NCBI GenBank assembly: GCA_019695295.1
Contig: JAIBAH010000006.1
Coordinates: 1 to 64,000 of the forward strand
Length of the DNA stretch: 64,000 bases
From: Bacteroidia bacterium
Lineage (GTDB): Bacteria > Bacteroidota > Bacteroidia > J057
Reading direction: 5' to 3'
The position numbers and the translations under genes were made by a program. Of this stretch, positions 22,549 to 38,255 are shown piece by piece. Numbering within the stretch: position 1 is the first letter of the stretch; every line of letters starts with the position of its first letter. The notes beneath the pieces are model-generated. The model did not search any database. It was not told the DNA's origin and worked only from the letters and a program-made list of their open reading frames with translations.

Positions 22549-22659
22549 TAGCCTCCGAGGGGGTGAGAAAGACACATTTGTGATACACAAACGTGGGCGT
22601 TGAGCGGGATAATACAGAAATCAGAAAAGGCTGTTTTCTGAAAAATGTTCCGGGGTTCA

Positions 22660-22691
22660 TTTGGTATTATCCGATAGTAATTCTATCTTTG
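22660..22691 (+). promoter_or_regulatory. Promoter of the LytS-type kinase gene
   Basis: TTTG (22660-22663), 20-nt spacer, TATCTTTG (22684-22691), both consensus. The expected start, 22696-22698, is right next to the TTG initiation codon at 22699, so the mRNA would be leaderless or nearly so. Confidence 0.7.
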
Positions 22692-22698
22692 TATCACT

Positions 22699-23655
22699 TT
22701 GAATAAAATACAACTAAATATCAACGGCATTGCAATCTCATTTTCTGTTATTCTGGCAGGAATAGGAACGATAGTCAGTGCGACCTTTTTACAAAGTAGA
22801 AATGTATTCCAAAGCCTTTTGCAGTGGGCTTTATTTTCGGGGATATTGTTTATATTGTGGAAAATCACCTACTACTTTCGGGAGAAGACGGATTACAGAT
22901 ATATTGGCATTAGCCTTGCTTTTATTGTTTTTTTTGGGTATCTGAATACCTTACTTTTTCCGGAGCAGTTATTGTTTATCAGTTTTATAAGGCTGTTTAT
23001 GCCGACCTTGCTGTTTACAATCTTACAACAGTATTTTTTGTCCAGAGAGCGAAGTGACAAATTGATGATTGAAAACCTCCAACTGAAAGCCGAAAGCTAC
23101 AAAGCAGAACTAGAAAACCTAAAAAATCAGCTAAATCCTCATTTACTCTTTAATTCACTTACCACTTTACAAGCGATTATTCGTTCGGATGCCAAAACCG
23201 CCGAAAAATTCGTGGTTGAATTATCAAAAATATACAGGATTGCGCTCCAGAAAGTCAATCACGGGAAATCTACCCTCAAAGAAGAAGTTGAATTTATACA
23301 AGGGTTTCTTTTTTTGCAAAAAACAAGATTTGAAAACAGCATACATTACAAGATAGAAACAGAAGAAAAATCCACAAATTATTGTTTACCTACTTTTGCT
23401 TTGCAATTATTGGTAGAAAATTGCATTAAACACAATATCGTTTCTACGGAAAAGCCACTGTACATCCATATTTTTCAGGAAAATCCGGAAACAATTACCG
23501 TTACCAATAATTTTCAACCCAAACTTTCCAAAACCGAAGAGAGCGGAATAGGGCTAATCAATCTGAAAAGAAGATATGAACTGTTTGGGATTGCCAACGG
23601 AATCGTAATCGAAAATTCCGACACCCTCTATAAAGTAACCCTAACCCTTTTTTGA
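22699..23655 (+). CDS. LytS-type sensor histidine kinase
   Basis: 318 residues beginning with TTG. Hydrophobic segments (about 13-30, 38-54, 69-87 and 92-112) form a membrane sensor with little periplasmic loop. A short coiled coil (KLMIENLQLKAESYKAELENL) leads into the His_kinase domain (PF06580 type) with QLNPHLLFNSLTTL, where the phospho-accepting His is near residue 146. The HATPase region has LLVENCIKHN (N box) and SGIGLINLKRRYEL (G box). It forms a pair with the LytTR regulator, whose start overlaps its end, and is followed by an ABC efflux operon that it presumably controls. No better-placed ATG exists before the first membrane segment. Confidence 0.88.
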   Translation: MNKIQLNINGIAISFSVILAGIGTIVSATFLQSRNVFQSLLQWALFSGILFILWKITYYFREKTDYRYIGISLAFIVFFGYLNTLLFPEQLLFISFIRLFMPTLLFTILQQYFLSRERSDKLMIENLQLKAESYKAELENLKNQLNPHLLFNSLTTLQAIIRSDAKTAEKFVVELSKIYRIALQKVNHGKSTLKEEVEFIQGFLFLQKTRFENSIHYKIETEEKSTNYCLPTFALQLLVENCIKHNIVSTEKPLYIHIFQENPETITVTNNFQPKLSKTEESGIGLINLKRRYELFGIANGIVIENSDTLYKVTLTLF

Positions 23656-23657
23656 AA

Positions 23658-24419
23658 ATGAATATTTTAATTATAGAAGATGAAATCAAAACGGCAAGGT
23701 TCTTAAAGGAGCTACTTGAGGAGCACGAAGACTGCATTGTAGTGGGAATTTGTGAAAGTATAACCGAAGGAATCGCCTATCTTAATAAAAATCAGGCAAA
23801 GTTGGATTTGATTTTCTCTGACATTCAGTTGTCTGATGGGAATGTTTTTGCCCTTTTTCAGGCTATCCGGATTACCAAACCGGTTGTGTTTTGCACGGCA
23901 TACAATCAATATTTTCTTGATGCATTCAAAAATAACGGCATTGATTACATCCTTAAACCCTTTGAGCAAAAAGACATTGACGACACCCTTCAAAAAGTTC
24001 GCTCCCTTCGAATGGCGTTCAATACCGCTAATATTAATTATGAATTGCTACACTTGCCCGTAACGCAAAAGCATTATCAAACTTCTTTTATTGTACAATT
24101 CCGGGAAAAAATGATACCGGTACTTGTTTCCGATATTGCTTTGTTTTTTCTTGAAAATGAAAGGGTGTATGTGCTGAGAAAAAACGGGGAGCAATCCCTT
24201 GTTTTTAAAACCCTGGACGAAGTAGAGCAAAGTACAGACCCTGTGCAGTTTTTTCGAATCAATCGTCAGATGATTGTGAATCGCACTGCCATTAAAGAAA
24301 TAGAACCCTACTTCAACCGCAAAGTGACGGTTAACCTTAGTCCAAAATTTTCTGAAAAACTAGTGGTAAGCCGACTAAAAGTAAGTGCATTTAAGCAATG
24401 GATTGAAAAGCCGGAGTAG
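23658..24419 (+). CDS. LytTR-family response regulator
   Basis: 253 residues from ATG 23658, two nucleotides after the kinase stop codon. The receiver domain (1-120) has IIEDE acidic residues, phospho-acceptor Asp55 in LIFSDIQLSDG, and the Lys of ILKPFEQKD. The C-terminal LytTR DNA-binding domain (about 148-250) shows IALFFLENERVYVLRKNGE, FFRINRQMIVNRTAIKEIEPYFNRKV and VSRLKVSAFKQWIE. LytTR proteins bind two direct repeats about 21 bp apart. Such a pair (24424-24455) begins 5 bp after this gene and precedes the efflux genes. Confidence 0.9.
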   Translation: MNILIIEDEIKTARFLKELLEEHEDCIVVGICESITEGIAYLNKNQAKLDLIFSDIQLSDGNVFALFQAIRITKPVVFCTAYNQYFLDAFKNNGIDYILKPFEQKDIDDTLQKVRSLRMAFNTANINYELLHLPVTQKHYQTSFIVQFREKMIPVLVSDIALFFLENERVYVLRKNGEQSLVFKTLDEVEQSTDPVQFFRINRQMIVNRTAIKEIEPYFNRKVTVNLSPKFSEKLVVSRLKVSAFKQWIEKPE

Positions 24420-24423
24420 CGGA

Positions 24424-24455
24424 TTTGTTCAATTTAAGGTTTGTTTTGTTCAATT
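24424..24455 (+). promoter_or_regulatory. Putative LytTR operator
   Basis: TTTGTTCAATT occurs at 24424-24434 and again at 24445-24455, offset exactly 21 bp (two helical turns). The match continues three bases later as GGT in both copies. The direct-repeat spacing is that expected for a LytTR dimer and the position is upstream of the TolC-like gene. Confidence 0.6.
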
Positions 24456-24572
24456 CGGGGTAGTATTCCTTTTATGGATTACTGCTTTTCCCGTCCTTTG
24501 AGAAAATTATTCTGAAAAAGGGTAGTGATTTTATCACGCGTTTTAACAGAAGATTCTATCAAGGTAAAAAAA

Positions 24573-25880
24573 ATGAAAAGTAAAGGGTTGTTTTTTCTTA
24601 TCCTGTTTGCAGGGGCTTTATTCGCCCAAAATAAGCCGGTTTCTCTTTCTTCTGTCGGGGAAGCACTCGCTTTGTCGGCGGCCAAGAACCCCGACCTGAA
24701 TGTTTATATCCTAAAGCAGTCAAAAACACAGCAAGAAATAAAAAATGCAAACTGGGCTTATATTCCTTCAGTATCAGGGAGTTTCGGTTTGCAGTACAAC
24801 ATTGACCGTCAAACTTCTGCCCTTCCGGGAGAAATTTTTGGATTGCCAGGACAAACCAAAAACGTACAATTGGGGACAGATTATGTGTATAATACCGGCG
24901 TGGGTATTTCCCTTGATGTATTCAATATGCAAACAATCCTCCAAAACCGAATTGCCAGAATCAACGCAGAAATGCAGGGCGCTCAAACTCAAGCCTACGG
25001 ACAACTTCTGAGAGAACAGACTGCCCTGTATTATTTCAGTGCCCTTATTTTTCAGCACTCAGTGGAAATCTATCAAAAAAATCTTCAGACATCGGATTCT
25101 ATTCTGATGCTTTCCAAACAACGGTATGAAAATGGACTGACCGATTTATTTACTTATAATCAGGCAAAAATCGTGGTAAACAGCCTTCAGCAAACCCTAA
25201 GCCTGAATGAAAAAAATGCCAGGGATTATTTGTTTTTGTTGAAGAATTTATTGGGAATGGAGGCAGATACAGAGCTCATTCTGAATGAAGTAATTGCCGT
25301 GAAAGAGAATCCTTTGCCTGAAATACAGGGATTGAAAGCGGACAAAAACCTTGACGTTACCCGTTTGATGAAGAAACAGACGGAAGCAGATATTCAACTC
25401 AAAAAATCATTTTTTATACCAAAATTAAGCCTGAATGGTTATTGGGGATTTCAAAATCTAAGTAACGAGGCATTTGAGTTTGACTGGTCAAAGTATAATT
25501 ATGTAGGGATAAACCTTGCGCTTCCGGTTACCAATGGATTTAAAAATCTGGGCAATCTCAAAATGGCAAAATGGAACGACCGGATTAATGCGCAGGTACT
25601 CCAAAATGAAACCGATAAATCCGAACTTAAAAATGCACAATTGATTTCAAATTACCGTTACGGATTACAACAACTACCGCTTTCATACAGTAATTATCAG
25701 CTTTCGCAGCAAAATGCCGCACTTGCGTTTCAAAAATATACAGAAGGGCTCATTAGTTCAGACAGTTACCTGAGGACTTATGAGGAGTATTTGAAATTCC
25801 AGCAAAATTATCTGAATACTTTATCTTCTGTTTACCTTTATTATTCCACGATTATTTCAAGACAATACTATGCAGACTAA
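24573..25880 (+). CDS. TolC-family outer-membrane efflux protein
   Basis: 435 residues from ATG 24573 (the frame is open 16 codons further up). The signal peptide GLFFLILFAGALFAQ is followed by two OEP repeats of long helices and short strands: SVGEALALSAAKNPDLNVY, then RYENGLTDLFTYNQAKIVV, and in the second half NYVGINLALPVTNGFKNL and KYTEGLISSDSYLRTYEEY. These are the TolC landmarks (xxA-x-x-NP, Y-x-x-G, G-x-x-x-L). It forms the outer-membrane exit duct of the tripartite pump encoded downstream. It overlaps the adaptor gene by 11 nt. Confidence 0.88.
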   Translation: MKSKGLFFLILFAGALFAQNKPVSLSSVGEALALSAAKNPDLNVYILKQSKTQQEIKNANWAYIPSVSGSFGLQYNIDRQTSALPGEIFGLPGQTKNVQLGTDYVYNTGVGISLDVFNMQTILQNRIARINAEMQGAQTQAYGQLLREQTALYYFSALIFQHSVEIYQKNLQTSDSILMLSKQRYENGLTDLFTYNQAKIVVNSLQQTLSLNEKNARDYLFLLKNLLGMEADTELILNEVIAVKENPLPEIQGLKADKNLDVTRLMKKQTEADIQLKKSFFIPKLSLNGYWGFQNLSNEAFEFDWSKYNYVGINLALPVTNGFKNLGNLKMAKWNDRINAQVLQNETDKSELKNAQLISNYRYGLQQLPLSYSNYQLSQQNAALAFQKYTEGLISSDSYLRTYEEYLKFQQNYLNTLSSVYLYYSTIISRQYYAD

Positions 25881-27171
25881 AATAAAAAAATCTCTCGCCC
25901 TCGTAGCGATACTTCTTTCATTTGCCATGATGCGCTGCGGTAAACCCAATCCTCCGGTAAATGCAGAACGGAAAGACATAGTAGAAGCCGTTTTTGCAAG
26001 CGGTGCGATTGTTTATACCAATGAATATTTGGTTACGGCAAACACAGAAGGATTTATTTTGCAGAAAAACGTAAAGGAGGGAGAACTTGTAAAACAAGGA
26101 GAGTTACTTTTCAGGCTCTCCAATGATATTCAAAATTTACAATCTGTCAATGCGCTGATTAATTATCAGGAAGCCGTCGGCAATGCAGAGGATAATTCTC
26201 CCAAAATCGAGTTGCTGAAAAACCAAATAGTACAGGCAAAGCAGACTTTGATGCTTGATAAAAGAAATTATGAACGCTATCAGGAGGAAATCGTTACGCC
26301 AAAAATTCAGCAAATCAGCAGTCAGCTTATACAAGCACGCCAGGCATTGGAGATGGACAAAAAAAATTATGAACGCTACGAAACCCTGATTAAAACACAG
26401 GCTGTATCAAAAGTAGAATATGACAAAGTAAAACTTCAGTATGAAAATTCATTGAAGAATGTAGAAATTATAGAGAAAAACTTATCAGAAAAACAAGCGG
26501 CAACAGCAATGGATTTGGATAAAGTAAAAGTTCAGTATGAAAACTCCCAGCTTAATGTTGCAATTTTAGAGAAAAACCTGTCGGATATTAAAAATACGCT
26601 CTCTCAAAATGTTAAAAAAACCAAAAATCAGGTGGACATCCAAAAGGAGTACAGCGGGGATTATTCCATCTCGTCTATCATGGACGGAATCGTGCTATCT
26701 GTGTTTAAAGAAACAGGAGAACTAGCAAAAAAGGGGGAGCCTCTCTCCAAAATAGGGGCAGGGACTTTGATTGCCCGGCTTTTTATCTCGGAAGAGGATA
26801 TTACCAAAATACAGTTGGGGCAAAAAACAGAAATGCAATTGAATACAGATAAATCCAAAGTTTATCCGGCCACAGTTTCCCGGATTTATCCCGCCTTTGA
26901 TACCCGTGAGCAGGCCTTCGTCATAGAGGCTACTTTTACGGAGATTGTTCCTCAGTTAAGGCCGGGTACACAGACTCAGGCGAATATCGTTACGGGCGAA
27001 AAGAAAAATGCACTGATTATTCCTTCAAAATATTTATTCGCTGGCGATAAAGTTATGCTTGAGAATAAGAAGCAACAACCCGTTCAGGTCGGAATCCGAA
27101 ACGCAGCATGGATAGAAATACTGGGCGGAATAGATGAAAAAACCAATCTCATTCTCCCTGAATCTAAATAA
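25870..27171 (+). CDS. Efflux periplasmic adaptor (HlyD/MacA type)
   Basis: 433 residues. The N-terminal signal ends in AMMRC (Cys23), a probable lipobox that would tether the adaptor to the inner membrane. The biotinyl-lipoyl half-motif GFILQKNVKEGELVKQGELLFRL (about 51-73) precedes a long alpha-hairpin coiled coil (about 80-250) rich in Gln/Lys/Glu. The second lipoyl half is IMDGIVLSVFKETGELAKKGEPL near 268. A beta-barrel with IARLFISEEDITKIQLGQKTEM and a C-terminal membrane-proximal domain follow. It bridges the FtsX/ATPase pump to the TolC duct. Only 3 nt separate it from the permease gene. Confidence 0.85.
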   Translation: MQTKIKKSLALVAILLSFAMMRCGKPNPPVNAERKDIVEAVFASGAIVYTNEYLVTANTEGFILQKNVKEGELVKQGELLFRLSNDIQNLQSVNALINYQEAVGNAEDNSPKIELLKNQIVQAKQTLMLDKRNYERYQEEIVTPKIQQISSQLIQARQALEMDKKNYERYETLIKTQAVSKVEYDKVKLQYENSLKNVEIIEKNLSEKQAATAMDLDKVKVQYENSQLNVAILEKNLSDIKNTLSQNVKKTKNQVDIQKEYSGDYSISSIMDGIVLSVFKETGELAKKGEPLSKIGAGTLIARLFISEEDITKIQLGQKTEMQLNTDKSKVYPATVSRIYPAFDTREQAFVIEATFTEIVPQLRPGTQTQANIVTGEKKNALIIPSKYLFAGDKVMLENKKQQPVQVGIRNAAWIEILGGIDEKTNLILPESK

Positions 27172-27174
27172 ATT

Positions 27175-28413
27175 ATGGTTACCAAAACAAACTTGAAAGT
27201 TGCCATAGCGCATCTTACCTCCCGGAAAAGACAGGCTGTAGTAGCGGTTTTAAGCGTTACTTTTGGGGTAGGGTTGTTTATCTTTATGAAAAGCTTTGTG
27301 GGGGGAATTAATGCTCAGCAGGCAGATTTGGTGTTTGCAAGTTCGGCTCACATTCGTATTTTTAACGAAGCCAACAGTCAGGTGCCCAATATCATTCCCA
27401 ATACTGAGACGCAAGTGGTAAATGTGCGTAATGCCAAGGCAATTCAATATACCGAGGGGATTAAAAATGCAGAAAAAGTTATAGCGGATTTACAGCATAA
27501 TCCTCATATCCTTTCTGTAACCGCTCAGGTAAATTTACCCGCTACCTTTAAAAACGGCTCGGCAAAAACGGGAGGCGTTCTCTCAGGGGTGGATGTTGTG
27601 AATGAAGACCTTATGTTTGGAATGAAAAAATTTATTCAAAATGGAAGTTGGGAAGAGCTGGACATAAGTAATAATCATATCGTTATTGGAAGAGGGATGG
27701 CTGAAAAGCTCAATTTGACCGTAGGTAGTATGATTGCCGTCACAAGTGCGGATAACGTTTCCAAAAATTTCAAAATCGTTGGCATAGTCTATTCCGGTAC
27801 GACCGCAGTAGATGACAATAAAGGGTTTATTAAAAAAACGGCGGCACTTCAACTCAGTAAAAAAAATCAGAACTACGCCACTGATATTCAGATCAATATC
27901 AGAGATTTTGAGCAGGCAATGGAAATCGCCCTACCGATGAAGCAGGAGGTAGCCTATAAGGTTGAAAGCTGGCAGGAGTCCAATCAACAACTGGTTACTG
28001 CTAATAACTTAAGAAACATGATTAGTACCGTGGTGCCGCTTGTGCTTATCATTGTAGCCGGTTTTGGGATATACAATATTATGACAATGACGGTCAATGA
28101 AAAAATAAAGGAAATCGCCATTCTTAAAGCGTTGGGTTTTGGAGGGAAGGATGTCATTCAAATATTTCTTACTCAGGCAGTACTCATCGGAATCGTCGGT
28201 GCTGTAACGGGGATTGGCCTCGGTTACCTTATCTCAACGATTATGAGTAAGTTGCCTATAAGTTTAGGTACTGCCAATCATTTGATTATTCTCTTTGAAC
28301 CCAAAACGTATATGCTGGCTACTGGAATCGGGTTAATTATTACCATCATAGCGGGTTATCTGCCGGCAAGAAAAGCCGCAGGCGTGGACCCCGTTCAAAT
28401 TATCAGAGGTTAA
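27175..28413 (+). CDS. FtsX-like ABC transporter permease (MacB/LolE type)
   Basis: 412 residues. One N-terminal membrane helix (about 19-40, AVVAVLSVTFGVGLFIFMK), then a periplasmic MacB-like core domain (about 45-275), then three C-terminal helices (about 283-305, 322-355, 378-398) with the intracellular motif MTVNEKIKEIAILKALGFGGKDVI, as in the type VII ABC superfamily (MacB, LolCDE, FtsEX). Such permeases work as mechanotransmitters, driving periplasmic adaptors without moving substrate through the inner membrane. The ATPase is encoded separately 2 nt downstream. The substrate (drug, peptide or lipid) cannot be inferred. Confidence 0.88.
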   Translation: MVTKTNLKVAIAHLTSRKRQAVVAVLSVTFGVGLFIFMKSFVGGINAQQADLVFASSAHIRIFNEANSQVPNIIPNTETQVVNVRNAKAIQYTEGIKNAEKVIADLQHNPHILSVTAQVNLPATFKNGSAKTGGVLSGVDVVNEDLMFGMKKFIQNGSWEELDISNNHIVIGRGMAEKLNLTVGSMIAVTSADNVSKNFKIVGIVYSGTTAVDDNKGFIKKTAALQLSKKNQNYATDIQINIRDFEQAMEIALPMKQEVAYKVESWQESNQQLVTANNLRNMISTVVPLVLIIVAGFGIYNIMTMTVNEKIKEIAILKALGFGGKDVIQIFLTQAVLIGIVGAVTGIGLGYLISTIMSKLPISLGTANHLIILFEPKTYMLATGIGLIITIIAGYLPARKAAGVDPVQIIRG

Positions 28414-28414
28414 T

Positions 28415-29092
28415 ATGGAAAATCTGGCATTGTCTGTAAAAAATATTAATAAATACTTCCACGACCCGGAAACCTTTCAGGTGCTCAAAGAGGTTTCCTT
28501 TGAGGTAAAGAAGGGGGAATTTCTGGCTCTTGTCGGGAAATCCGGCTCAGGAAAATCAACGCTCTTATATGTTCTTTCTACAATGGATACGGATTTTACC
28601 GGTAGCCTTATCATAAACGGTACGAATCTCGAAGGAAAAACCCAAAACGAACTTGCGGCTTTCCGGAACGAACACATCGGTTTTGTGTTTCAGTTTCATT
28701 ATTTGCTTCCTGAATTTTCGGCAATAGACAACGTTATGCTTCCTGCGATGAAACTGGGAAAAAAATCCCATGAAGAAATAAGGGGAGACGCTATGCAAAA
28801 TTTAATCCTTTTAGACCTCAAAGAGCAAGCGGAAAAACCGGCAAGCAAACTTTCCGGGGGACAACAGCAAAGGGTTGCAATTGCGCGTGCTTTAATCAAT
28901 CAGCCCGCCATCATTATGGGAGACGAGCCTACCGGAAATTTAGATTCCAAAAATGCAAAAGGAGTATTTAACATTTTCAAACAACTCTGTAAGGAAAAAG
29001 GACAAACAATCATTGCCGTTACGCATGACGATGATTTTGCCGCCAACTGTGACCGGATTATTGAAATGAGAGACGGGATTTTATTCAGTTGA
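28415..29092 (+). CDS. ABC transporter ATPase (LolD/MacB type)
   Basis: 225 residues. Walker A GKSGSGKST (near 41), Q-loop FVFQFHYLLPEF (near 91), signature LSGGQQQRVAIARAL (near 144), Walker B AIIMGDEPT (near 165), D-loop NLDS and H-loop VTHDD (near 205). This is the nucleotide-binding partner of the preceding FtsX permease and the last gene of the six-gene regulator-pump cluster. No terminator is visible after it. The next 430 bp hold no supported gene. Confidence 0.9.
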   Translation: MENLALSVKNINKYFHDPETFQVLKEVSFEVKKGEFLALVGKSGSGKSTLLYVLSTMDTDFTGSLIINGTNLEGKTQNELAAFRNEHIGFVFQFHYLLPEFSAIDNVMLPAMKLGKKSHEEIRGDAMQNLILLDLKEQAEKPASKLSGGQQQRVAIARALINQPAIIMGDEPTGNLDSKNAKGVFNIFKQLCKEKGQTIIAVTHDDDFAANCDRIIEMRDGILFS

Positions 29093-29520
29093 TTGATTTT
29101 CTTTCTGGATTCGTACCCATTGGAAAAGGGAGAGTGTATTTTCGTTCGGTCATAAGAAGTAATAAAATCTATAAAGCTCCCAACTACAAAAACTACCCCT
29201 TCGTCCAAAGAAAACCTGTAGTGCTCAAACCGATAATCAAAAAAAAGCAAAAAACAGGTTATCAACAAGTTATATTCAGATAGCGGCAACTTTGGTTATG
29301 TATTTGAAGGGGTTTGGCCAGTCGTAAGTGCCAAGTACAGAATAAATCTCCTGGAGTTATCTTCTTCTTTGGGTTCCCGGAATTGGAGAAAGAGATACGC
29401 ATGAGGGAATATTTAAGGAAATTGGGGGGTATTGGGGTGATAGATATCCGGGGGGCTAAGGCTATGTGTGTGTTTTTAGTAATTTATTTTAATCTATTGA
29501 TAATCAATTACTTTTTAAAG
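29093..29520. other. Intergenic lead-in to the repeat array
   Basis: 428 bp after the ABC operon. Open frames (29089-29283, and the first part of 29314-29838) have no recognisable product. A TTATCAACA resembling a DnaA box is at 29259-29267 but is solitary. The stretch just before the array becomes G-rich on the plus strand. Confidence 0.4.
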
Positions 29521-29814
29521 AAAAGCATTCTCGTTGTGAATAAAAGCATAGTCATTGTTGAGAAAAGCATTATCATTGTGAGTAAAAGCATAGTCATTGT
29601 GGGAGTTTTCATTGTGATTGCGGATAAAAGCGTGGTCATTTTTGACATTTTTAGTATGGTTGTTGATTGTTTTAGTAGGGTTGTTAAGGTTTGCATTCGT
29701 GTTTTTGATGATTTCAGTGTCATTTTTATGGGTTGTATGTTGATTATTTCAGTTCTCATGATAATTTTGAGTAAAAGTGTGTTTGTTTTTAGTAATTTCA
29801 GGTTCATTGCGGGA
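29521..29814. repeat. Degenerate 21-bp tandem array (14 units)
   Basis: Fourteen consecutive 21-bp units can be laid out without gaps. Four of the first six are nearly identical, beginning AAAAGCAT and containing GTCATTGT or a variant, for example units at 29542, 29563 and 29584. Later units drift to the form TTTnnnGTnnnGTTGnTGAT. Because 21 is a multiple of 3, frames stay open on both strands and give heptad-like translations (KSIVIVx repeats on plus, TMLLLTM-like on minus). I regard these as by-products unless expression is shown. Confidence 0.75.
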
Positions 29815-29888
29815 GGGAGAATGAAGTTTGGCAGATAAAACAGCAGGGAATTTATTTTGTGATGGAGGTTTATTTAAGATTCAATGAT

Positions 29889-30519
29889 GTTTCCGGTAGC
29901 GTTGATGATGAATATTCCGGGTTTAATGGCGTTCCTGTTTGGTTGATTGATGTTTCCGGTGGCGTTGATGATGAATATTCCGGGTTTAATGGCGTTCCTG
30001 TTTGGTTTAATGATGTTTCCGGTGGCGTTGATGATGAATATTCCGGGTTTAATGGCGTTCCTGTTTGGTTTGATGAGGTTTCCGGTGGCGGTTGATGATG
30101 AATATGCTGGATTTAATGGCGTTCCTGTTTGGTTTGATGGGGTTTTCGGTGGGGTTGATGATGAATATGCTGGGTTTAATGGCGTTCCTGTTTGGTTTGA
30201 TGGGGTTTTCGGTGGGGTTGATGATGAATATGCTGGGTTTAATGGCGTTCCTGTTTGGTTTGATGAGGTTTTCGGTGGGGTTGATGATAAATGTGCTGGG
30301 TTTAGTTGCGTTCCTGTTTGGTTGGATGGGGTTTTCGGTATCCTTGATGGTGGATATTTGAATTTTGATACCATTCCTGAAGGGTTGAATGCGATTCCGG
30401 GGGATTGTAATGACGAATACTTTGGAATCGATACCGTTCCAAAAGGGTTGAATGGGGATTCCGGAAGTGTTAAAGACGGATAATTGGGCTTTGATTCCTT
30501 TTTCGGAGGTTTGAATGGG
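29889..30519. repeat. 63-bp tandem array, each unit built of three 21-bp subunits
   Basis: Ten units start at 29889, 29952, 30015, 30078, 30142, 30205, 30268, 30331, 30394 and 30457. All are 63 bp except the fourth, which has one extra G (64 bp). Units 1-4 are near-identical and start GTTTCCGG, units 5-7 start GTTTTCGG, and units 8-10 are diverged. Each splits into three 21-bp subunits with the ending G(A/G)T or GGC. The plus strand is strongly G/T-rich. Translations give a 21-residue repeat on plus (VDDEYAGFNGVPVWFDGVFGG-like), interrupted by the extra G, and uninterrupted Thr/Pro/Asn repeats on minus. Confidence 0.9.
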
Positions 30520-30550
30520 GTGAATGGCAGACTTGACGCACTTTTTTGAA
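30515..30550. repeat. 36-bp direct repeat (right copy), at the end of the array
   Basis: Identical to 22513-22548. It starts inside the last five bases of the tenth 63-bp unit and continues into unique sequence, so it behaves as a fixed terminus of the array. Confidence 0.85.
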
Positions 30551-30566
30551 CAGTCTCATGGCAATT

Positions 30567-31499
30567 TCAGCGTCTTCTTTTTTTATCCAGCAATTCTGCT
30601 GCAATGTCTGCAATCTCTTGCACTTTTCGGGCTTTTAAGATAGGGGGTTGCTTTTTGACGTCAGCCATAAGGGTTAGTTTATTAAGTAAACTTTTGCTTA
30701 AATTGAGTTCTTGCCGGGCAAGTCGCAAAAGGAAATCGTTTTTTTCGGCTTCTGTTAATTTTGCGATTAAATCCGGTAAATCAAGCATATTTTCTTTGAT
30801 ATCCTGACTAACTGTAGCTGCTGCCTGTATCCATTCCTCCGGTAAGCCTAAAAAACTGGCAAAACACTGCAAGTCAGCATTTAATTGATTTAAGCCTGCG
30901 GGGACAGGCGGTTCACTTACCTTCCTCTTTATTGCCAGAACGCGCTCTACGCCCTCTAAGTTCTCCCATTCTGATTGTTGTCCATCCTCTTGTTCATAGT
31001 AATCTTCATCAAAATAAGCCTGCGAATATTCGGAATGAAAATAAAGCCATGCTATATATAAGGCCCTATAATCTCCTTCCATAATTGCATTACGAATGCC
31101 TGTCATATCTGAAAGTATTGAACTGTCCTCTTCAATCCACTCATCATATCCTCCCTCTTCTACACTTTCACTAAAAATTAGCAATATATGGTTTTTATCG
31201 CTTTTAAGCTCAATATTATCGGAAAAAGTATAGGGAATAATGGCTTTTTTGTCAATACTGCCTAATGGAAAGCGAAAAATAAGTTTTTTTATCCCAAAAT
31301 TTGCCCAATACAGCATGGCATCAAAATACTGAAAGGTGACCTTTTCTTCATCTTGCCGAAAGTCGCCATAAGAGTATGTAAAGACGGCTTTATGGCTACT
31401 CACTTTAGCCCGGCTCGACCATTTATTGATTTCTGCCCGCTCTTCTGCTGTCAAAGCACGGTCAATGGTCTGAAATTCATATACCTGATATTCGCTCAT
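30567..31499 (-). CDS. Conserved hypothetical protein (MSEYQxYEFQ family)
   Basis: 310 residues, soluble and acidic in the middle (a YFDEDYYEQEDGQQSEWE stretch near residue 165). The opening MSEYQVYEFQTIDRALTAEE, then SSRAKVSSHKAVFTYSYGDFRQDEEK and YFDAMLYWANFGIKKLIFRFP, resembles a widespread bacterial hypothetical family that begins MSEYQYYEFQAIDRPLT and has a Y-x-WGDF motif. I recall no function, though relatives often neighbour SWIM zinc-finger genes. The C-terminal 100 residues are helical. It is probably intact and has no visible partner here. Its end lies 17 bp from the 36-bp repeat, at the edge of the accessory region. Confidence 0.6.
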   Translation of the reverse strand: MSEYQVYEFQTIDRALTAEERAEINKWSSRAKVSSHKAVFTYSYGDFRQDEEKVTFQYFDAMLYWANFGIKKLIFRFPLGSIDKKAIIPYTFSDNIELKSDKNHILLIFSESVEEGGYDEWIEEDSSILSDMTGIRNAIMEGDYRALYIAWLYFHSEYSQAYFDEDYYEQEDGQQSEWENLEGVERVLAIKRKVSEPPVPAGLNQLNADLQCFASFLGLPEEWIQAAATVSQDIKENMLDLPDLIAKLTEAEKNDFLLRLARQELNLSKSLLNKLTLMADVKKQPPILKARKVQEIADIAAELLDKKRRR

Positions 31500-31606
31500 A
31501 CGTTATGATTGTGGAATTGTGTTTTGTGTAGCTAATGTAAAAACAACCCTGTCTATTCTTTTGTTTGAATAATCTTGTCTGAATTTTGCGCCTTTTTGTG
31601 CCTTCA

Positions 31607-31735
31607 TTAACGGATTTTTTTAGCAATATTGTTGTTTTCGTAAGCCTTGGATACTGCTTTTTGTTGATTCTCCGTAGGAGGTGTTTTGCAGAACTCTTGC
31701 GGGGAATGGGGGAGAGATGTCAGAATGACTTTATT
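31607..31735 (-). pseudogene. Possible C-terminal gene fragment
   Basis: A 39-codon open stretch with coding-like composition ending at TAA (31607-31609). It contains PQEFCKTPPTENQQKAVSK and YENNNIAKKIR. There is no start codon: an in-frame stop precedes it, right beside the palindrome at 31742-31776. It may be the tail of a gene cut off by insertion of that element. No family recognised. Confidence 0.25.
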
Positions 31736-31741
31736 TTATAG

Positions 31742-31776
31742 TTCCCGTAAGTCGCCCTTCGGGTGACTTACGGGAA
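31742..31776. repeat. Palindromic intergenic element, copy B
   Basis: TTCCCGTAAGTC (31742-31753) pairs with GACTTACGGGAA (31765-31776), with three more C-G pairs inside around a TTC turn, and is followed by GGAGG. It shares the frame TTC....AAGT...ACTT....GAA with the palindrome at 5141-5179, but the variable stem bases differ in a compensated way. Confidence 0.65.
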
Positions 31777-31803
31777 GGAGGCCCGGGTAAGCCAAAGACA
31801 TTT

Positions 31804-32232
31804 TTATCCTGGAAATTGAAACCAAAAGTCTCCTAAAATAGATTTTTTCGCATCTTCTAAATTTAGCCCCTCTGCCGTTGTCCACCACTGCTCTGTATGC
31901 CGAAAATAGGCCAAATTAAAAGTAGTATTACTTGTACATTCAATTCGTACATTTTTATATTCATGATAAGGCAGAGTTGCCCCCTCTCGCGCATCGCGTT
32001 GATTGTAGGTGATATATAAGAAATTACGATACCATTTAAACTCAACCGATATCGGGTACAAGCCCAAACTTACGTCATTCTCATGCGTTTCCGCCTTGCA
32101 GTCCTTTGCTTGAAACTGCTCCAGTACTTCTTGAAAACCTGCCTCTATTGCCTCTTTATTAAGAGAAGAAGCATTTAATTTGGGCTTGGTTGGCGCCCAG
32201 CCCCAAACCGCTTTTTTCTTTGACTTTGCCAT
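31804..32232 (-). CDS. Hypothetical protein
   Basis: 142 residues, soluble. A lysine-rich start (MAKSKKKAVWGWAPTKPK) is followed by an alpha/beta domain with Trp/Tyr-rich strands (SVEFKWYRNFLYITYNQRD, FNLAYFRHTEQWWT). No family recognised. The size and fold are reminiscent of small immunity or anti-toxin-like proteins, but that is impression only. It lies 33 bp downstream of a frame-shifted small gene on the same strand and may have formed a two-gene unit with it. Nothing indicates regulation beyond a possible -7 element at 32488-32495. Confidence 0.55.
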   Translation of the reverse strand: MAKSKKKAVWGWAPTKPKLNASSLNKEAIEAGFQEVLEQFQAKDCKAETHENDVSLGLYPISVEFKWYRNFLYITYNQRDAREGATLPYHEYKNVRIECTSNTTFNLAYFRHTEQWWTTAEGLNLEDAKKSILGDFWFQFPG

Positions 32233-32265
32233 TTGTATTTTTTGTGTGAGTGTGGTGACAGGAAA

Positions 32266-32461
32266 TTATTTTGATTTGTGATTACAATTTTGTTTTTTAG
32301 GGATGAAATTAATTTGAGTAGATATATCTTCTATCCACTTTAAACGGGCTAAATCGGTTTCAACCTTTCCTTTAGGTACCTTTAATCCCATCCTTTTAGG
32401 GAACCCAAAGTTAATCTTAGGGTAGGGCTTGTTTCTGGATTTCTTTTGGTATTCCTGTCAT
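32266..32461 (-). pseudogene. Frame-shifted small gene (about 65 residues)
   Basis: Two frames read as one product if one base is removed near 32420-32430 on the minus strand. The first is MTGIPKEIQK from ATG 32461; the second is NKPYPKINFGFPKR, then MGLKVPKGKVETDLARLKW and IEDISTQINFIPKK, ending at TAA 32266-32268. The second part alone could start at ATG 32391 (41 residues). Composition is clearly protein-like. The family is unknown. A minus-strand -7 box TATTTTTG (32488-32495) lies about 27 nt before the first ATG. Confidence 0.4.
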
Positions 32462-32495
32462 TATTTGGTGTGGCTTTATTGATTCTGCAAAAATA

Positions 32496-32860
32496 AGAAA
32501 TTATTTATTACAGAGCGTTTTTTTTGAGTAAGCAGGTAAATACTGCAGGAATTGCTTCATTTCTACCCGTTTGATTCTTGCTTGTTTTCGCGATTATGTT
32601 ACTTTTAGTGGCTGTCTGGTGGTTTGGAGACTCATTTTATGATTTCTGGGAAGTAGTGTTTTGGGTGGGTTACGGGAAAGGGGGAAATGATTTATGGGAA
32701 TTGTTTGTGAATAATATATTCCATTCATCCCTTTTTTTCTTAAATGGAGTTGAATTCTGAAGTATCTATAGTTTTAAATACCAAAATATGGTTTAAAAAA
32801 TACTGTTATCTGCCACCCCTCAAATGATATTTAATCCAGAAAGTTAAACTTCTTCCGTAT
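32496..32860. other. Intergenic region, no supported gene
   Basis: 365 bp with a 60-codon plus-strand frame (32578-32760) rich in Trp/Phe and lacking any family resemblance. I see no repeat or RNA here. Confidence 0.4.
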
Positions 32861-33499
32861 TTACTCCTCAATAACTTTATACAAAAGGCTAACCGTAAGG
32901 TTTGCGGTTGGAAAAACACCACGCTTATAGGGAATCATACCTCCTCTAAGGTTAAAACCCAGTCCCCACGGACGTAGTGCCTGAGTTAATTCATAATTTC
33001 GGGAAAATTGTTTGTCCTGATAAGGAAAAAAACTTCCTCCCAACCCTCCCGAAAAGCTGAAAGTATGAGTCGGTTTTGTACATTTCTCAAGGCAATCGGG
33101 AATAAATCCTTCTGCAATAATTTGTGGCTTATTATAGAACATATATTGGTAATATACACCGGCACTTACATATATTCCTTTGGAAGACTCCTTAAAGTAG
33201 TAACGGGCCTCAGGATGAACCATGAAAAAATTCACTGCCGTTTTGTTTTTTTTCTCAAGAAATGGTAAGGGGCGAGAATAGCATATTGGATGATAGACAC
33301 GCCAGTATCCGATATCTGAAGCTATAGACCATTTGTCTTTGAAACCGTACTCTCCCCCAACAGATGCAAGGAAATTTGCCGGAATATAAATACTCATACC
33401 CGAACGCAAAGTTACAGGATGAGGGACTATCTGAGCCTCTATCTTTATTACTGAACTCAGCAGTACAACTAAAATGAAAAATGTGAGCTGTTTCATCAT
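32861..33499 (-). CDS. Outer-membrane beta-barrel-like protein
   Basis: 212 residues. The signal peptide spans about residues 1-22 (FFILVVLLSSVIKIEAQ). The rest alternates aromatic/glycine-rich strands: FLASVGGEYGFKDKWSIASDIGYW, HPEARYYFKESSKGIYVSAGVYYQY, LGFNLRGGMIPYKRG. This pattern is found in small DUF3575-like barrels of Bacteroidota, whose usual P-E-x-RYYF motif is present as PEARYYF. A pair of cysteines (DCLEKC) in a loop may be disulfide-bonded. It ends in a strand (LTVSLLYKVIEE). Single-gene; MM start, either Met possible. Confidence 0.65.
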   Translation of the reverse strand: MMKQLTFFILVVLLSSVIKIEAQIVPHPVTLRSGMSIYIPANFLASVGGEYGFKDKWSIASDIGYWRVYHPICYSRPLPFLEKKNKTAVNFFMVHPEARYYFKESSKGIYVSAGVYYQYMFYNKPQIIAEGFIPDCLEKCTKPTHTFSFSGGLGGSFFPYQDKQFSRNYELTQALRPWGLGFNLRGGMIPYKRGVFPTANLTVSLLYKVIEE

Positions 33500-33833
33500 T
33501 TGATTCTTTTGAATAAATTGAAAGCCAGGATTTCCAACGAAAAAAGTAACCCTTTAGTTAAGTATTACATTTTTCCCTTTCTCAAAAAACTACTCGCAAA
33601 TTATAACAAAAGTAGAATAATCATCTGAGAAATAAAAATAATATGTTTTATTTTTTCGCTCATTCTTGTTATAACCCCTGCAATTAAACACCAACAAAAT
33701 CGAATTAAAGGTCGAAGCACTGATAAAACACCTTGTGAGTGGTTACATTGAATTTATTCCTACTTAATCGGCTCAAAAATAATTTAAAAAAAAACTCATT
33801 AAAATAAGCGAAATTTTATTTTGTAAACGAAAG
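33500..33833. other. AT-rich intergenic region
   Basis: 334 bp, upstream of the barrel gene. On the minus strand TACTTTTG (33607-33614) fits a -7 box but lacks a spaced -33 element. Otherwise I see nothing. Confidence 0.35.
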
Positions 33834-33993
33834 TGTACCCCATTCATTGGACAGTAAAAACTAAACTTGGAAGGTACTGGTTCTGGGTTTTTGGGTGGTG
33901 TTGCTGTGCTTAAATACCAACAAGAGTGAGGTATATCCCATTCATTGGACAGTAAAAACCAAACTTGGAAGGCACTATTTCTGGGTTTTTGGG
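33834..33993. repeat. Duplicated IS-end-like sequence
   Basis: About 57 bp at 33839-33895 recurs at 33937-33993 (offset 98 bp, about four or five mismatches). Both copies contain CCATTCATTGGACAGTAAAA. The left copy starts TGTACCCCATTCATTGGACA, which resembles terminal inverted repeats of IS3-family (IS150-like) insertion sequences. No transposase is present, so these would be relics. They adjoin the defence genes. Confidence 0.55.
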
Positions 33994-34046
33994 GCTAAGA
34001 TTGAATGGAATGAGGGGGATAAAATATAAGAATATTAAACACTATT

Positions 34047-35987
34047 TTATACTTCTTTCGTATTATCTTCTCCAAACCATTCTCTTGCTCTTGCTAAAAC
34101 GTCATCTGTTGGATTGTAATAGTAAACAACTAAGTTTTTCTTTGCTCTTGTGCAGCATACATAGAAAAGTTTTTGGGTGCGTTTGAATACACTTATTCTA
34201 CTTTTGGCATCTTTTATTCTCTTTTCATTAGTTTTCGACTTTTGTTCTTCTCCTCTTAAATTTTGTTCCAATCCTATTATGCTATTTTCAAATAAATCCT
34301 TAAAATTATATTTACTCCACTTCCCATTATCCATGACAATAAATACATTGTCAAACTCGTCGCCTTTAATACTATGCTGAGTAGAATAGATAGTATATCC
34401 TTCTATGTAGTTGTATAAATTTACTACTTCTTGATATGGCACTTTTCGCACTTTTTCATAAATATGCTCATAATATTCGTTTTTTGTGATAAACTCTTTG
34501 AGTCTATCCTTCTTCTTCCAAATATTTTGACTATCGAATAAGTCTATAACTTCTCCTATTGTTTTATTATTTGTATCAACTAAGCCCTCTATATTTTTCT
34601 TTAAGGCTATAAGATGTTGTTGCTTAATGACTTTTTTATCATTATCTTCCTCAGTTATATTTTTCCAAAAATCTGTTTTTTTGATAAACTCATTATGCCT
34701 ATTGGTTGAATAGAAATCAATACACTCCTGAATATCAAATAGATGTTGAATTAAAGGATCTCTTTTTGAACCCTTTTTTTCATCTTCACTATCAATCTTT
34801 TTCCCTTTGACAAGGTTATCCTTATCAATACGAATTTTATTCAACTCCTTAAAAGTCCATTTTTTTACTATATCGAAAATAGCCTTGTTTTCCTCTAATG
34901 CTATATATTCAGATTGATTTTTGGTCATTGGGAAATCTATCAATACCTTTTCAAGAGTAACATCTTCATCTATTTTAATTTCTTTATTATTAATATTATC
35001 TCTATATTTTAGGATTTGGTCTTTGTCGTAAATTTCCATTAAACGAGGAAAACCAACTTTTGGCGCAATCAAATTATGCGTAAGGTATAATTCTTTATTT
35101 GTTGATTTACTACCATCTTCATAAGTTTCTATTGGGAAGTTAAAATATCGTTCTTTTATTTTTTCAATGTCTTTTTCAGTTTTTGACCATACAAAAGTAA
35201 TATTTCCTTCTACTCCATAATTAGGTGCTTCTTTATCGCCAGCGTGTTTCTGCTTAAGATTATCTAATCTCAACTGATTTGCTAAATCAATGACAATTTG
35301 TGGATTTCTTCTATTGTCTTCTTTGGGTACTTCTTTAATTGTTTCTTCTTCAATGAATGTCTTAACATCTCCAACACCCTCATCATAAATCGCTTGCATA
35401 GAATCTCCAAATAACCCAATGAGGCATTTCTCTGTGTAAGGATATAAAGAGGTTAAAAAAAGTTCTATCACTTCTTTTGATGTATCTTGGTACTCATCTA
35501 TAAAAATAAAATCATATTTGTCTGACAAAATGCGAGCAAGTAAGGGATAATTTTCGACCATATATTTTGCAAGCATAACGACCTCCTCATGCGAAACAGT
35601 GCCTTTCTCTAAGTCTTTCCATTCTTTGTATTCTATCTTTGTAATATCATTTATAGGCAATGGCTCGCCTTTGTAATAGTTTATCTCTTTCTTTTCCACT
35701 AATGTAACAAGAGCCTCTTTCAAATTCTTTTGATATTGTTCTATATTGTCCCACAAAAAACTATGTATTGTGTTCACATACAGATTCTCAAAAGGCGCAC
35801 GCCCTTTGATTTCATTTGTTGCAACATTTGTATAAGTAATACAGGCTACTTTTGCCAAAGGATTTTCAGCATATATTCTTTTTAGTACTTCTACTAATGT
35901 ATAAGTTTTTCCACTTCCTGCGCCACCACTTAGCAAGAAATTTTCTCTTTTTTGGATATGTCCAAAAATTTTGTCTAATTCGTTCAT
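34047..35987 (-). CDS. gajB: UvrD-like helicase, GajB-type partner of the OLD nuclease
   Basis: 646 residues from ATG 35987, which overlaps the upstream stop as ATGA, implying translational coupling; the frame is open 16 codons further but inside gajA. SF1 helicase motifs: Walker A LLSGGAGSGKTYTL near 20, motif Ia ACITYTNVATNE, Walker B FIFIDEYQDTS near 163, motif III LIGLFGDSMQAIY, motif V STQHSIKGDEFDNV near 535 and motif VI YVCCTRAKKNLVVYY near 610. In Gabija, GajB senses DNA ends and works with GajA to block phage. At 646 residues it is longer than the best-studied GajB. The base composition is AT-rich relative to the flanks, as expected for a transferred module. Confidence 0.8.
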   Translation of the reverse strand: MNELDKIFGHIQKRENFLLSGGAGSGKTYTLVEVLKRIYAENPLAKVACITYTNVATNEIKGRAPFENLYVNTIHSFLWDNIEQYQKNLKEALVTLVEKKEINYYKGEPLPINDITKIEYKEWKDLEKGTVSHEEVVMLAKYMVENYPLLARILSDKYDFIFIDEYQDTSKEVIELFLTSLYPYTEKCLIGLFGDSMQAIYDEGVGDVKTFIEEETIKEVPKEDNRRNPQIVIDLANQLRLDNLKQKHAGDKEAPNYGVEGNITFVWSKTEKDIEKIKERYFNFPIETYEDGSKSTNKELYLTHNLIAPKVGFPRLMEIYDKDQILKYRDNINNKEIKIDEDVTLEKVLIDFPMTKNQSEYIALEENKAIFDIVKKWTFKELNKIRIDKDNLVKGKKIDSEDEKKGSKRDPLIQHLFDIQECIDFYSTNRHNEFIKKTDFWKNITEEDNDKKVIKQQHLIALKKNIEGLVDTNNKTIGEVIDLFDSQNIWKKKDRLKEFITKNEYYEHIYEKVRKVPYQEVVNLYNYIEGYTIYSTQHSIKGDEFDNVFIVMDNGKWSKYNFKDLFENSIIGLEQNLRGEEQKSKTNEKRIKDAKSRISVFKRTQKLFYVCCTRAKKNLVVYYYNPTDDVLARAREWFGEDNTKEV

Positions 35988-38059
35988 TGTCTTAACCATA
36001 ATAAGCCTTGTTTGATATAAAAAGGAATCTGCCAATTTTCAAAATTTTCGCCACCAAAGTAGAGAATGTCTAAGGCAAATGCGGATTTGTTATCATCACT
36101 AATACAATCTCTTGCTAACTCATAAGGATTTTTATCTGGATTAAATTGTTTGCGATTTTTTAATCCTTTAAACTTTTTTTTGTTTTCTTCTATAAATTTG
36201 TAATTGACATGAATAAAAGCATCTTCAAAACTTCGGGGATGATAATTTATGTCTTTTATTACCTCTTCAAGTTGATATGATACTAAAACTTTATTTTCCA
36301 TAATGGTTCTATCTTCTTTTGAAAACTTTTTTAGTTGGTCTAAATCATTTGTTTTTAAAAATCTTTTAATGGAACTATTGCTACTTAATTCGCCTTCAGC
36401 AACGGGGCGTTTTAGATAAGCAAATTTTTCACTACTGTCTTCGTTAAATTTTCCTGTTTTAACTTTTTTCACTGAATCTAAATCCGTAATAATCAATACT
36501 TTTATTCCTAAAAACTTAATAAACTCCTTAAAAATATGTGCATAAGCCCCTGCTTCTACAATCGAAATATGTTGCGAAAGTAATGGTATTGTATTCTCAT
36601 CTTTATATTCAATATCCATTTTTTTCATCATAGCAGGTAACAATATTCTTTCTGTATCGCCTTCTATAAAAATCGCTTTATCTGCAAAAAATAATTCTGC
36701 TTTATTCAAAGTCAGATACTGTTTTAAGAATCGAAAATTTTGCTCTTTTATGGTTTCATTCTTACTATTTTCATTTTTAGGTTTTAAGGCTTTTAAGTTT
36801 TTAGAAACAATGCTTTTACCTTCTTTGCGAAAATATTTTATGTCCTCAAAATCACTTTTAGAAACAATATGAGGGGAATGTGTGCTAATAATCGTTTGGG
36901 CATTTTTTAGCCCTTTTTTGTTTTCTTCTAATAGTTTTTTGATATTTTCAATAAAAATATGCTGCATTTGTGGGTGTGTATGTGCTTCGGGTTCTTCAAT
37001 AAAAATCATATTTATATCAGCTGGTTTTGCTTTTTTAAAACCCATAAATAGCATTTCTATTTCAAAAATCATATTTATCAGGTTCATATAACCTAATCCA
37101 TTATAATCTTCTGGCAATAGGTTGCCGTCCTGATTGTACACCACAGAAGTATTCTCTCTTAAAAGATTTCTACCTTCTAAAGTTGATTTAATGGTAATAG
37201 TAGAGTCATCTGTCTTGACACCACCAAAGGTTCCTACTTTACCTAAAATGGTTTCAAATAATGCCTTATAAACGCTATTAAGTTCGCCATCTGCTTTTTT
37301 TAACTGCTCATTCAATCCTTCTATCTTCTCTTGTATTTTTTTCACCTCGTCATCTCTTTCTATTTCCTCTTTTTTAAAATTAGAAACTTTGTCATAATAT
37401 CTCGAAGAAGCATTAGAAAGCGTCTTATCATTTCTGCGATTCGAGCCTGGTTGATTGTTTACAGCTCTTTTGGCATGAATACATTGAAAATTAATGATAT
37501 TTGATACCTTACTTTTTTCAAAATTTATTTGATTTTCTTCATTATTCGGTTCTATTGCTTTTACATAAATCTGAAAGTAATCTGTATAGTGTTTTCGCAG
37601 AAAATCTTTTATCTCAGCCTTATTTCCTTCAATATCTTTTTTTAATTCTACTAATTTTTTGTTCGTTATTCCATACTCAAAACGCAAAATAACTTTATTA
37701 TTAGTGGGGTCTAAATTTAACATGAGTAAAGAAATATTAGTCAAATCATCCTCATTATCATACTCAATATGCAAATCAAGTGTAATCGCTAATACTGTTT
37801 TAATTGGCTCTTTTTCTTTTGTTGGAACTTCTATCTTTTGAATAGTTTCTACAATCTTTTCTTGATAACCTATATTAAAATCATCAAAAGCAAATGTACT
37901 GCCTCCTTCTGGCGCAGCTAAAAACCTTTCTAACAAAGAAAGAAAAGAAGTTTTCCCACAATTATTTTTACCAATAATAAGAGATAAATCATCTTCTAAA
38001 TCAATGGTAAAATCTTTTAGTAATCGGTAGTTTTTAATTTTTATTTTTGAAATTTTCAT
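35984..38059 (-). CDS. gajA: Class 2 OLD-family ATPase/TOPRIM nuclease, GajA-type
   Basis: 691 residues from ATG 38059 (MKISKIKIKNYRLLKDF, the usual SMC/OLD opening). The ABC-type ATPase has Walker A IIGKNNCGKTSFL near 33, a coiled coil near 240-275 (EEIERDDEVKKIQEKIEGL), Walker B MIFIEEPEAHTHP near 350 and H-loop ISTHSPHIV near 390. The C-terminal TOPRIM nuclease has AIFIEGDTERILLPAM near 465 (catalytic Glu) and VLIITDLDSV near 523 (DxD). An OLD protein followed directly by a UvrD-like helicase defines class 2 OLD/Gabija systems. It is somewhat longer than the Bacillus GajA. The promoter on the minus strand is at 38097-38129. Confidence 0.85.
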   Translation of the reverse strand: MKISKIKIKNYRLLKDFTIDLEDDLSLIIGKNNCGKTSFLSLLERFLAAPEGGSTFAFDDFNIGYQEKIVETIQKIEVPTKEKEPIKTVLAITLDLHIEYDNEDDLTNISLLMLNLDPTNNKVILRFEYGITNKKLVELKKDIEGNKAEIKDFLRKHYTDYFQIYVKAIEPNNEENQINFEKSKVSNIINFQCIHAKRAVNNQPGSNRRNDKTLSNASSRYYDKVSNFKKEEIERDDEVKKIQEKIEGLNEQLKKADGELNSVYKALFETILGKVGTFGGVKTDDSTITIKSTLEGRNLLRENTSVVYNQDGNLLPEDYNGLGYMNLINMIFEIEMLFMGFKKAKPADINMIFIEEPEAHTHPQMQHIFIENIKKLLEENKKGLKNAQTIISTHSPHIVSKSDFEDIKYFRKEGKSIVSKNLKALKPKNENSKNETIKEQNFRFLKQYLTLNKAELFFADKAIFIEGDTERILLPAMMKKMDIEYKDENTIPLLSQHISIVEAGAYAHIFKEFIKFLGIKVLIITDLDSVKKVKTGKFNEDSSEKFAYLKRPVAEGELSSNSSIKRFLKTNDLDQLKKFSKEDRTIMENKVLVSYQLEEVIKDINYHPRSFEDAFIHVNYKFIEENKKKFKGLKNRKQFNPDKNPYELARDCISDDNKSAFALDILYFGGENFENWQIPFYIKQGLLWLRQ

Positions 38060-38096
38060 TGGGGTGTTAATAGTTAAATAAATATACAATTAAACG

Positions 38097-38129
38097 CAAA
38101 TTTAATAAAACAAATTTAGTAAAATCAAA
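38097..38129 (-). promoter_or_regulatory. Promoter of the OLD/UvrD module
   Basis: Minus strand: TTTG (38126-38129), 21-nt spacer, TAAATTTG (38097-38104). The leader to ATG 38059 would be about 30 nt. Confidence 0.55.
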
Positions 38130-38255
38130 TATTAAGTAAAATATTTTGTTACAACTCCAAAAAAACACATTTAAGCATCATTTGATTGTCACAGCCCACA
38201 AATTACAATTCTTCCCCCTCACAAAAAAAACCACAAACAGACAAACCCTCATACT

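What the first reader, a model, noticed from the sequence alone, without database searches (positions are those of the whole stretch)
34047..38059. Gabija-type (class 2 OLD nuclease + UvrD helicase) defence module
The two motifs sets are complete (OLD ATPase plus TOPRIM; all main SF1 helicase motifs), the genes overlap by ATGA, and the module has its own promoter and lower G+C than its neighbours. Both proteins are longer than the characterised Bacillus pair, so it may be a distinct subtype. It is flanked on one side by IS-end-like relics and unknown genes, as in defence islands.
Basis: partly seen in the sequence, partly recalled or inferred. Interest (0 to 1): 0.6.

Follow-up and report, generated by a model that had tools for sequence, protein, structure and literature searches.

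The report
Ordinary Gabija anti-phage gene pair
A bacterium of the Bacteroidota carries a complete, recently acquired copy of Gabija, a common two-gene defence system in which a DNA-cutting enzyme and a helicase-like partner protect the cell from phages; it is a good example of a known thing, not a new one.

Summary
The finding is right in its main claim and ordinary. Window 35984-38059 (-) encodes a 691-aa OLD-type ATPase/TOPRIM nuclease, and 34047-35987 (-) a UvrD-type helicase overlapping it by ATGA. PADLOC's GajA and GajB models match both proteins over their full length (781 and 636 bits). The 'unusual' length is normal for a widespread branch: in 80 related loci GajA has a median of 697 aa and GajB 643 aa, and GajB follows GajA in 80 of 80. 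A tree puts the nuclease with helicase-linked (class 2) OLD proteins, apart from three helicase-free OLDs. The best Foldseek matches are Bacillus cereus GajA. Catalytic residues are intact. The pair lies in a roughly 15.8-kb insertion that a congener lacks, with much lower G+C (29.5% against 41.1%). Not supported: 'IS-end relics' (a two-copy repeat unique in the genome, no transposase) and a 'defence island' (none of 13 neighbouring proteins scanned is a convincing defence protein). One open question: the longer GajB resembles complete UvrD helicases more than the non-unwinding Bacillus GajB.

The parts
35984..38059 (-). gajA: OLD-family ABC ATPase + TOPRIM nuclease, 691 aa
   Evidence: PADLOC GajA PDLC00079 781 bits, residues 1-691 on profile 1-701 of 702; AAA_15 and OLD-like_TOPRIM; top Foldseek hits are B. 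cereus GajA; E466, E470, G504, D526, D528, E612, K658 the same in 34 of 34
34047..35987 (-). gajB: UvrD/PcrA-type SF1 helicase-like protein, 646 aa from the ATGA start (650 aa from the upstream ATG at 35999)
   Evidence: PADLOC GajB PDLC00135 636 bits on profile 6-601 of 603; UvrD-helicase; Walker A, DEYQDT and motif VI residues conserved
35984..35987 (-). ATGA overlap of the gajA stop and the gajB start
   Evidence: sequence; reading frames overlap in 79 of 80 related loci
38097..38129 (-). candidate Bacteroidota-type promoter TTTG-N21-TAAATTTG, 38 nt upstream of gajA
   Evidence: pattern match, 9 in the window against 3.9 expected; consensus recalled; untested
22484..38255 (.). variable region of about 15.8 kb that holds gajAB, between a HAD-like gene and an M14 carboxypeptidase gene; absent in a congener
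   Evidence: in G002 the two flanking genes are convergent and 10 bp apart
33833..33993 (.). two copies of a 63-bp direct repeat downstream of gajB; origin unknown

Best explanation
A complete, probably functional Gabija anti-phage operon of a widespread long-protein branch, acquired horizontally. GajA is expected to form a tetramer through its ATPase domain and the helical insertion; its TOPRIM centre (E466, E470, D526, D528, K658) cuts DNA with two metal ions. GajB docks on GajA, hydrolyses ATP and is needed for defence. On infection the complex acts on phage DNA, most likely on injected linear DNA or free ends not held by a RecBCD/AddAB-type enzyme, and blocks phage replication. Shown here: both intact genes, family membership, conserved active sites, conserved pairing, foreign composition and an empty site in a congener. 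Inferred from studied Gabija systems: assembly, cutting, trigger and the defence phenotype.
For: PADLOC GajA 781 bits and GajB 636 bits end to end, against AriA 209 and Old 108 bits. GajB with GajA in the window and 18 of 18 fetched neighbourhoods (in one, L042, GajB is split into two frames) and in 80 of 80 genome-contig loci. Tree of 35 OLD proteins: window among the helicase-linked ones, three helicase-free OLDs apart at 100/99. Foldseek ranks 1-5 are B. cereus GajA, E 4e-21 to 2e-16. Catalytic residues invariant. Only OLD-type TOPRIM match in the own genome. G+C 29.5% against 41.1%, patchy occurrence (3 of 60 genomes, 19 of 395, own genome counted in both) and an empty site in G002 indicate horizontal gain. 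A RecB/AddA-like gene is present at a contig end (150.6 bits, below the recB cut-off). Mechanism from PMC10781630 (sections 4 and 5 read), PMC10822852 (section 9 and passages read), PMC12407980 (discussion and passages read), PMC10568477 (passages read).
Against: Identity to the characterised Bacillus pair is low: single-sequence phmmer finds no Bacillus GajA up to E 0.1, and the profile ranks class 1 TsOLD (1e-25) slightly before BcGajA (4e-22). In VIA-align BcGajA leads (Z 19.7) but SMC heads and retron Eco8 effectors score 17 to 19. GajB is closer in profile and fold to UvrD/PcrA than to BcGajB. Trigger and phenotype are untested; published models disagree (nucleotide depletion with abortive action, or non-abortive end targeting; PMC12407980 discussion).
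Confidence: 0.93

Rival explanations
1. A class 1 (stand-alone) or class 3 (retron-linked) OLD nuclease with a helicase next to it by chance.
For: TsOLD scores slightly above BcGajA in the profile search; retron Eco8 OLD is among the fold matches.
Against: Helicase in 80 of 80 related loci, with overlapping frames in 79; tree separates three helicase-free OLDs; PADLOC GajA far above Old; no reverse transcriptase recognised among the ORFs listed around the pair.
Confidence: 0.03
2. A nuclease-helicase pair for DNA repair or housekeeping rather than phage defence.
For: GajB is most like UvrD/PcrA repair helicases.
Against: Patchy occurrence (19 of 395 genomes), no match in congener G002, low G+C, and a GajA from another part of the tree in congener G001: the pattern of a mobile accessory system.
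Confidence: 0.03
3. A decayed, inactive remnant left after acquisition.
For: None found in the genes; the neighbouring spacer holds odd repeats.
Against: Both frames open at full length with all catalytic residues.
Confidence: 0.01

Closest known systems
Gabija long branch: PADLOC PDLC00079 (GajA) and PDLC00135 (GajB); many Bacteroidota, Bacillota and others (L048-L127)
   Same: Same two genes, order, overlap and length; 44-54% identity for GajA in A4, 41-49% for GajB in A5
   Different: Window GajA has a long end branch and no close sister in the trees
Gabija of Bacillus cereus VD045 (GajA 578 aa, GajB 494 aa; PDB 8SM3, 8U7I, 8JQB)
   Same: ATPase-TOPRIM nuclease plus SF1 helicase-like partner; same active-site pattern; best Foldseek hits for GajA
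   Different: About 110 and 150 residues longer here; 14-18% identity in the Foldseek alignments of the first-ranked GajA chains; GajB fold closer to UvrD
Gabija on the Pseudomonas Pf prophage PfAC02b (GajA 647 aa, GajB 660 aa)
   Same: Similar length; 36% identity over the full GajA; neighbour of the branch in the tree at 100/100
   Different: Carried by a filamentous prophage
Class 1 OLD (Thermus TsOLD, phage KS5 Old)
   Same: ATPase-TOPRIM architecture
   Different: No helicase partner; KS5 Old is separate in the tree

Membership tests
Gabija (class 2 OLD + UvrD-like partner) | GajA: OLD ABC ATPase + TOPRIM with intact catalytic residues | tested here: met
Gabija (class 2 OLD + UvrD-like partner) | Adjacent UvrD/PcrA/Rep-like gene in one operon | tested here: met
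   conserved in 80 of 80 relatives
Gabija (class 2 OLD + UvrD-like partner) | Phylogenetic place with helicase-linked OLDs, not with class 1 | tested here: met
   35 rows; three helicase-free OLDs split off at 100/99. Several rows have long branches, and the Bacillus-like representatives are plasmid homologues, not the VD045 protein itself
Gabija (class 2 OLD + UvrD-like partner) | Helical insert in the TOPRIM domain typical of class 2 | tested here: inconclusive
   The model aligns with BcGajA from residue 1 to 691, but the insert was not compared on its own
Gabija (class 2 OLD + UvrD-like partner) | GajA-GajB 4:4 complex | not testable with these tools
   no complex prediction was available
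Gabija (class 2 OLD + UvrD-like partner) | Phage restriction that needs both genes | not testable with these tools
   needs a bench test
Retron with OLD effector (class 3) | Adjacent reverse transcriptase and ncRNA; effector model above cut-off | tested here: not met
   no such ORF recognised among those listed at 30000-43000; GajA scores 63.8 bits against the Eco8 effector cut-off of 250
PARIS (AriA-AriB) | AriA as best match and an AriB partner | tested here: not met
   AriA 209 bits against GajA 781; the partner is a helicase
Defence island | Other defence genes clustered nearby | tested here: not met
   13 neighbouring non-Gabija proteins scanned: 11 without a hit, 2 (an ABC ATPase and its permease) with generic ATPase or permease hits; defence genes unknown to PADLOC 2.0.0 are not excluded

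The most novel reading that the evidence does not exclude
In the long branch GajB is a real DNA helicase: its roughly 150 extra residues, mainly a helical region around residues 330-535 with a conserved block near 400-424 (K400, K401, R413, D414, L416, H419, Q424), supply the duplex-handling parts that Bacillus GajB lacks. These Gabija systems would then unwind or translocate on phage DNA while GajA cuts, instead of using GajB only as an ATPase partner, so that 'Gabija' would hold two working modes.
Probability: 0.18. Interest if true: 0.45.

Novelty: new member of a known kind. Interest (0 to 1): 0.14.

Why it matters
It adds little as a discovery: Gabija is among the commonest prokaryotic defence systems. 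Its use is as a representative of a long-protein branch that PADLOC models but for which my searches showed no solved structure of a close relative. It also gives a clear case of gain, with an empty site in a congener, and a handle on an open question about GajB: Bacillus GajB does not unwind DNA and lacks the UvrD gating helix, GIG motif and separation pin (PMC10681800, section 18 and passages read), while the longer GajB here folds most like complete UvrD-type helicases.

Tried and rejected
Sigma-70 promoters: at chance. IS relics: the repeat is confined to this locus; the only further hit of the spacer in the own genome is a 29-bp stretch on contig 165, not followed up. The 310-aa 'MSEYQ' protein (30567-31499) as a Gabija accessory gene: it flanks Gabija in the window and in congener G001, but on opposite sides; it is near Gabija in 0 of 80 genome-contig loci, occurs in G006 and G012, which have no GajA match at 1e-30, and in 1 of 395 phylum genomes, the own one. 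Rejected as a system part. Shared recent ancestry of the Gabija copies of the two congeners: G001's GajA groups with Deferribacteres and Gastranaerophilales sequences (100*; 100/100), so independent gains are likelier; no AU test was run. The first genome-contig scan with one protein found no relative; the second, with alignment A3, worked. GIG motif of UvrD in this GajB: the profile alignments with PcrA/UvrD skip the accessory region, so it is undecided. BcGajB does not appear among the 50 listed VIA-align rows for the GajB model; it is at Foldseek ranks 26, 33 and 44; absence from such a list shows nothing. Selection notes: of the 18 other phylum hits, 16 were fetched (G428 and G216 were not); tree 1 dropped three identical rows; tree 2 used 25 of the 99 GajA rows plus 10 references, chosen by me; A4 used 33 and A5 32 of the 80 loci. 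The 80 loci are the best of 314, so their lengths lean towards this branch; the ten references run from 572 to 712 aa.

Full report
What is there. Two genes on the minus strand, gajA (35984-38059, 691 aa) and gajB (34047-35987, 646 aa; 650 aa if the in-frame ATG at 35999 is used), overlap by ATGA. Both frames are intact. G+C of the module is 29.5% against 41.1% for the rest of the window, and no 4,013-bp stretch clear of it falls below 37.2%.

Family. Against PADLOC, GajA gives 781 bits with PDLC00079 (profile 1-701 of 702) and GajB 636 bits with PDLC00135 (6-601 of 603). The next kinds are far lower: AriA 209, Old 108. Pfam gives AAA_15, OLD-like_TOPRIM and UvrD-helicase. NCBIfam gives no match above its cut-offs. 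The own genome has one OLD-like TOPRIM match, this one.

Relatives. Of 60 related genomes 3 have a match at E 1e-30 or better, the own included; of 395 in the phylum sample 19 at 1e-20, the own included. I fetched 18 neighbourhoods; in all 18 and in the window a GajA and a GajB stand together, although in L042 GajB is split into two frames. A scan of genome contigs with the alignment of the seven closest GajAs found 314 relatives and kept 80, spread over Bacteroidota, Bacillota, Chlorobiota, Deltaproteobacteria, Saccharibacteria and others. GajB is present in 80 of 80. GajA length: median 697, range 656-760; GajB: median 643, range 384-683; reading frames overlap in 79 of 80.

Active sites. 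In the 34-row alignment A4 the GajA residues K36, T37, E355, E356, E358, H394, E466, E470, G504, D526, D528, E612, D613 and K658 are the same in 34 of 34. In A5 the GajB residues D168, E169, Q171, D172, D199, Q202, R231, K545 and R618 are the same in 33 of 33, and the Walker A GKT in 32 with one gap. E466/E470/D526/D528 correspond to B. cereus E379/E383/D432/D434 by the profile alignment (residue roles from PMC10822852 section 9). Matching E612 and K658 with D511/D513 and K541 is inference.

Phylogeny and fold. In a 96-row tree the window GajA lies in an 84-row branch with full support and has a long end branch; the GajA of congener G001 lies elsewhere in that branch. In a 35-row tree with outside references the three helicase-free OLDs form their own side (100/99). 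The window is inside a 16-row branch (97/90), whose neighbour is the Pf-prophage GajA (100/100). Several reference rows have long branches, so the deep order is uncertain. The AlphaFold model of GajA (mean pLDDT 82.5) finds B. cereus GajA at Foldseek ranks 1-5 and TsOLD at 6; VIA-align gives BcGajA Z 19.7 (rmsd 8.6, 492 aligned), with SMC heads close behind on the N-terminal ATPase part. The GajB model (pLDDT 85.7) matches UvrD, PcrA and Rep first and BcGajB at rank 26; VIA-align gives D. radiodurans UvrD Z 27.4 (rmsd 4.2, 355 aligned).

Setting. In congener G002 the HAD-like gene (named from its motif by recall) and the M14 carboxypeptidase gene that bracket the region are convergent and 10 bp apart, while in the window they are about 15.8 kb apart. 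That region also holds a two-component system and an efflux/ABC cluster (names by recall) and unknown genes; its part outside gajAB has 38.5% G+C, so gajAB probably arrived separately. Of 13 neighbouring non-Gabija proteins scanned, 11 have no PADLOC hit; an ABC ATPase and its permease give only generic hits, the best 117 bits to mad3. The spacer downstream of gajB holds a 63-bp repeat in two copies; a 22-bp core occurs nowhere else in the own genome with up to 2 mismatches. A Bacteroidota-type promoter pattern lies 38 nt before gajA.

How it most likely works. As in studied Gabija systems: GajA tetramer with TOPRIM cutting, GajB docked on it, complex formation needed for defence (PMC10781630 sections 4-5). 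Published triggers differ: nucleotide depletion with abortive action, or non-abortive action on linear DNA free of RecBCD (PMC12407980 discussion). I prefer the second because it rests on in vivo genetics; the own genome has a RecB/AddA-like gene at a contig end (150.6 bits, below the recB cut-off), so the protecting partner may exist. This is inference.

What remains open. Bacillus GajB does not unwind DNA and lacks the gating helix, GIG motif and separation pin of UvrD (PMC10681800). The GajB here is about 150 residues longer, with a helical accessory region that is conserved in the branch. Whether it restores unwinding cannot be told: the sequence profile does not align that region with UvrD.

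Verdict. A genuine, intact, ordinary Gabija operon: a new member of a known kind.

Noticed in passing
L151 3001-6923 (Pseudomonas phage PfAC02b): A filamentous Pf prophage carries gajA-gajB as cargo, annotated as such in the record; its GajA is the outside neighbour of the window's branch.
   Followed up: partly
L007 302-10163: In genome G032 gajAB sits between what look like type III restriction-modification mod and res genes and a DUF2130-like gene, all in one direction with short or no gaps (names by recall). L080 has similar mod/res genes upstream.
   Followed up: partly
window 30567-31499 (-); L008 10924-11832 (-): A 310-aa protein without Pfam, NCBIfam or PADLOC match stands near Gabija in two congeners but on opposite sides; absent from the rest of the phylum sample.
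   Followed up: yes
window 29874-30483: Tandem-repeat region with long overlapping frames on both strands; the translated repeats look non-coding or low-complexity.
   Followed up: no
window 33833-33993: 63-bp direct repeat in two copies, starts 98 bp apart, not found elsewhere in the genome; origin unknown.
   Followed up: partly
L007 30-299 and similar genes in other loci: A small helix-turn-helix-like gene (XRE type by recall) recurs in 14 of the 83 loci compared, not in the window; possibly a regulator of Gabija.
   Followed up: no
L058, L066, L077, L079, L083, L089, L110: Gabija of the branch lies among conserved conjugative-transfer-like genes in about seven loci (names by recall), a likely vehicle.
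   Followed up: no
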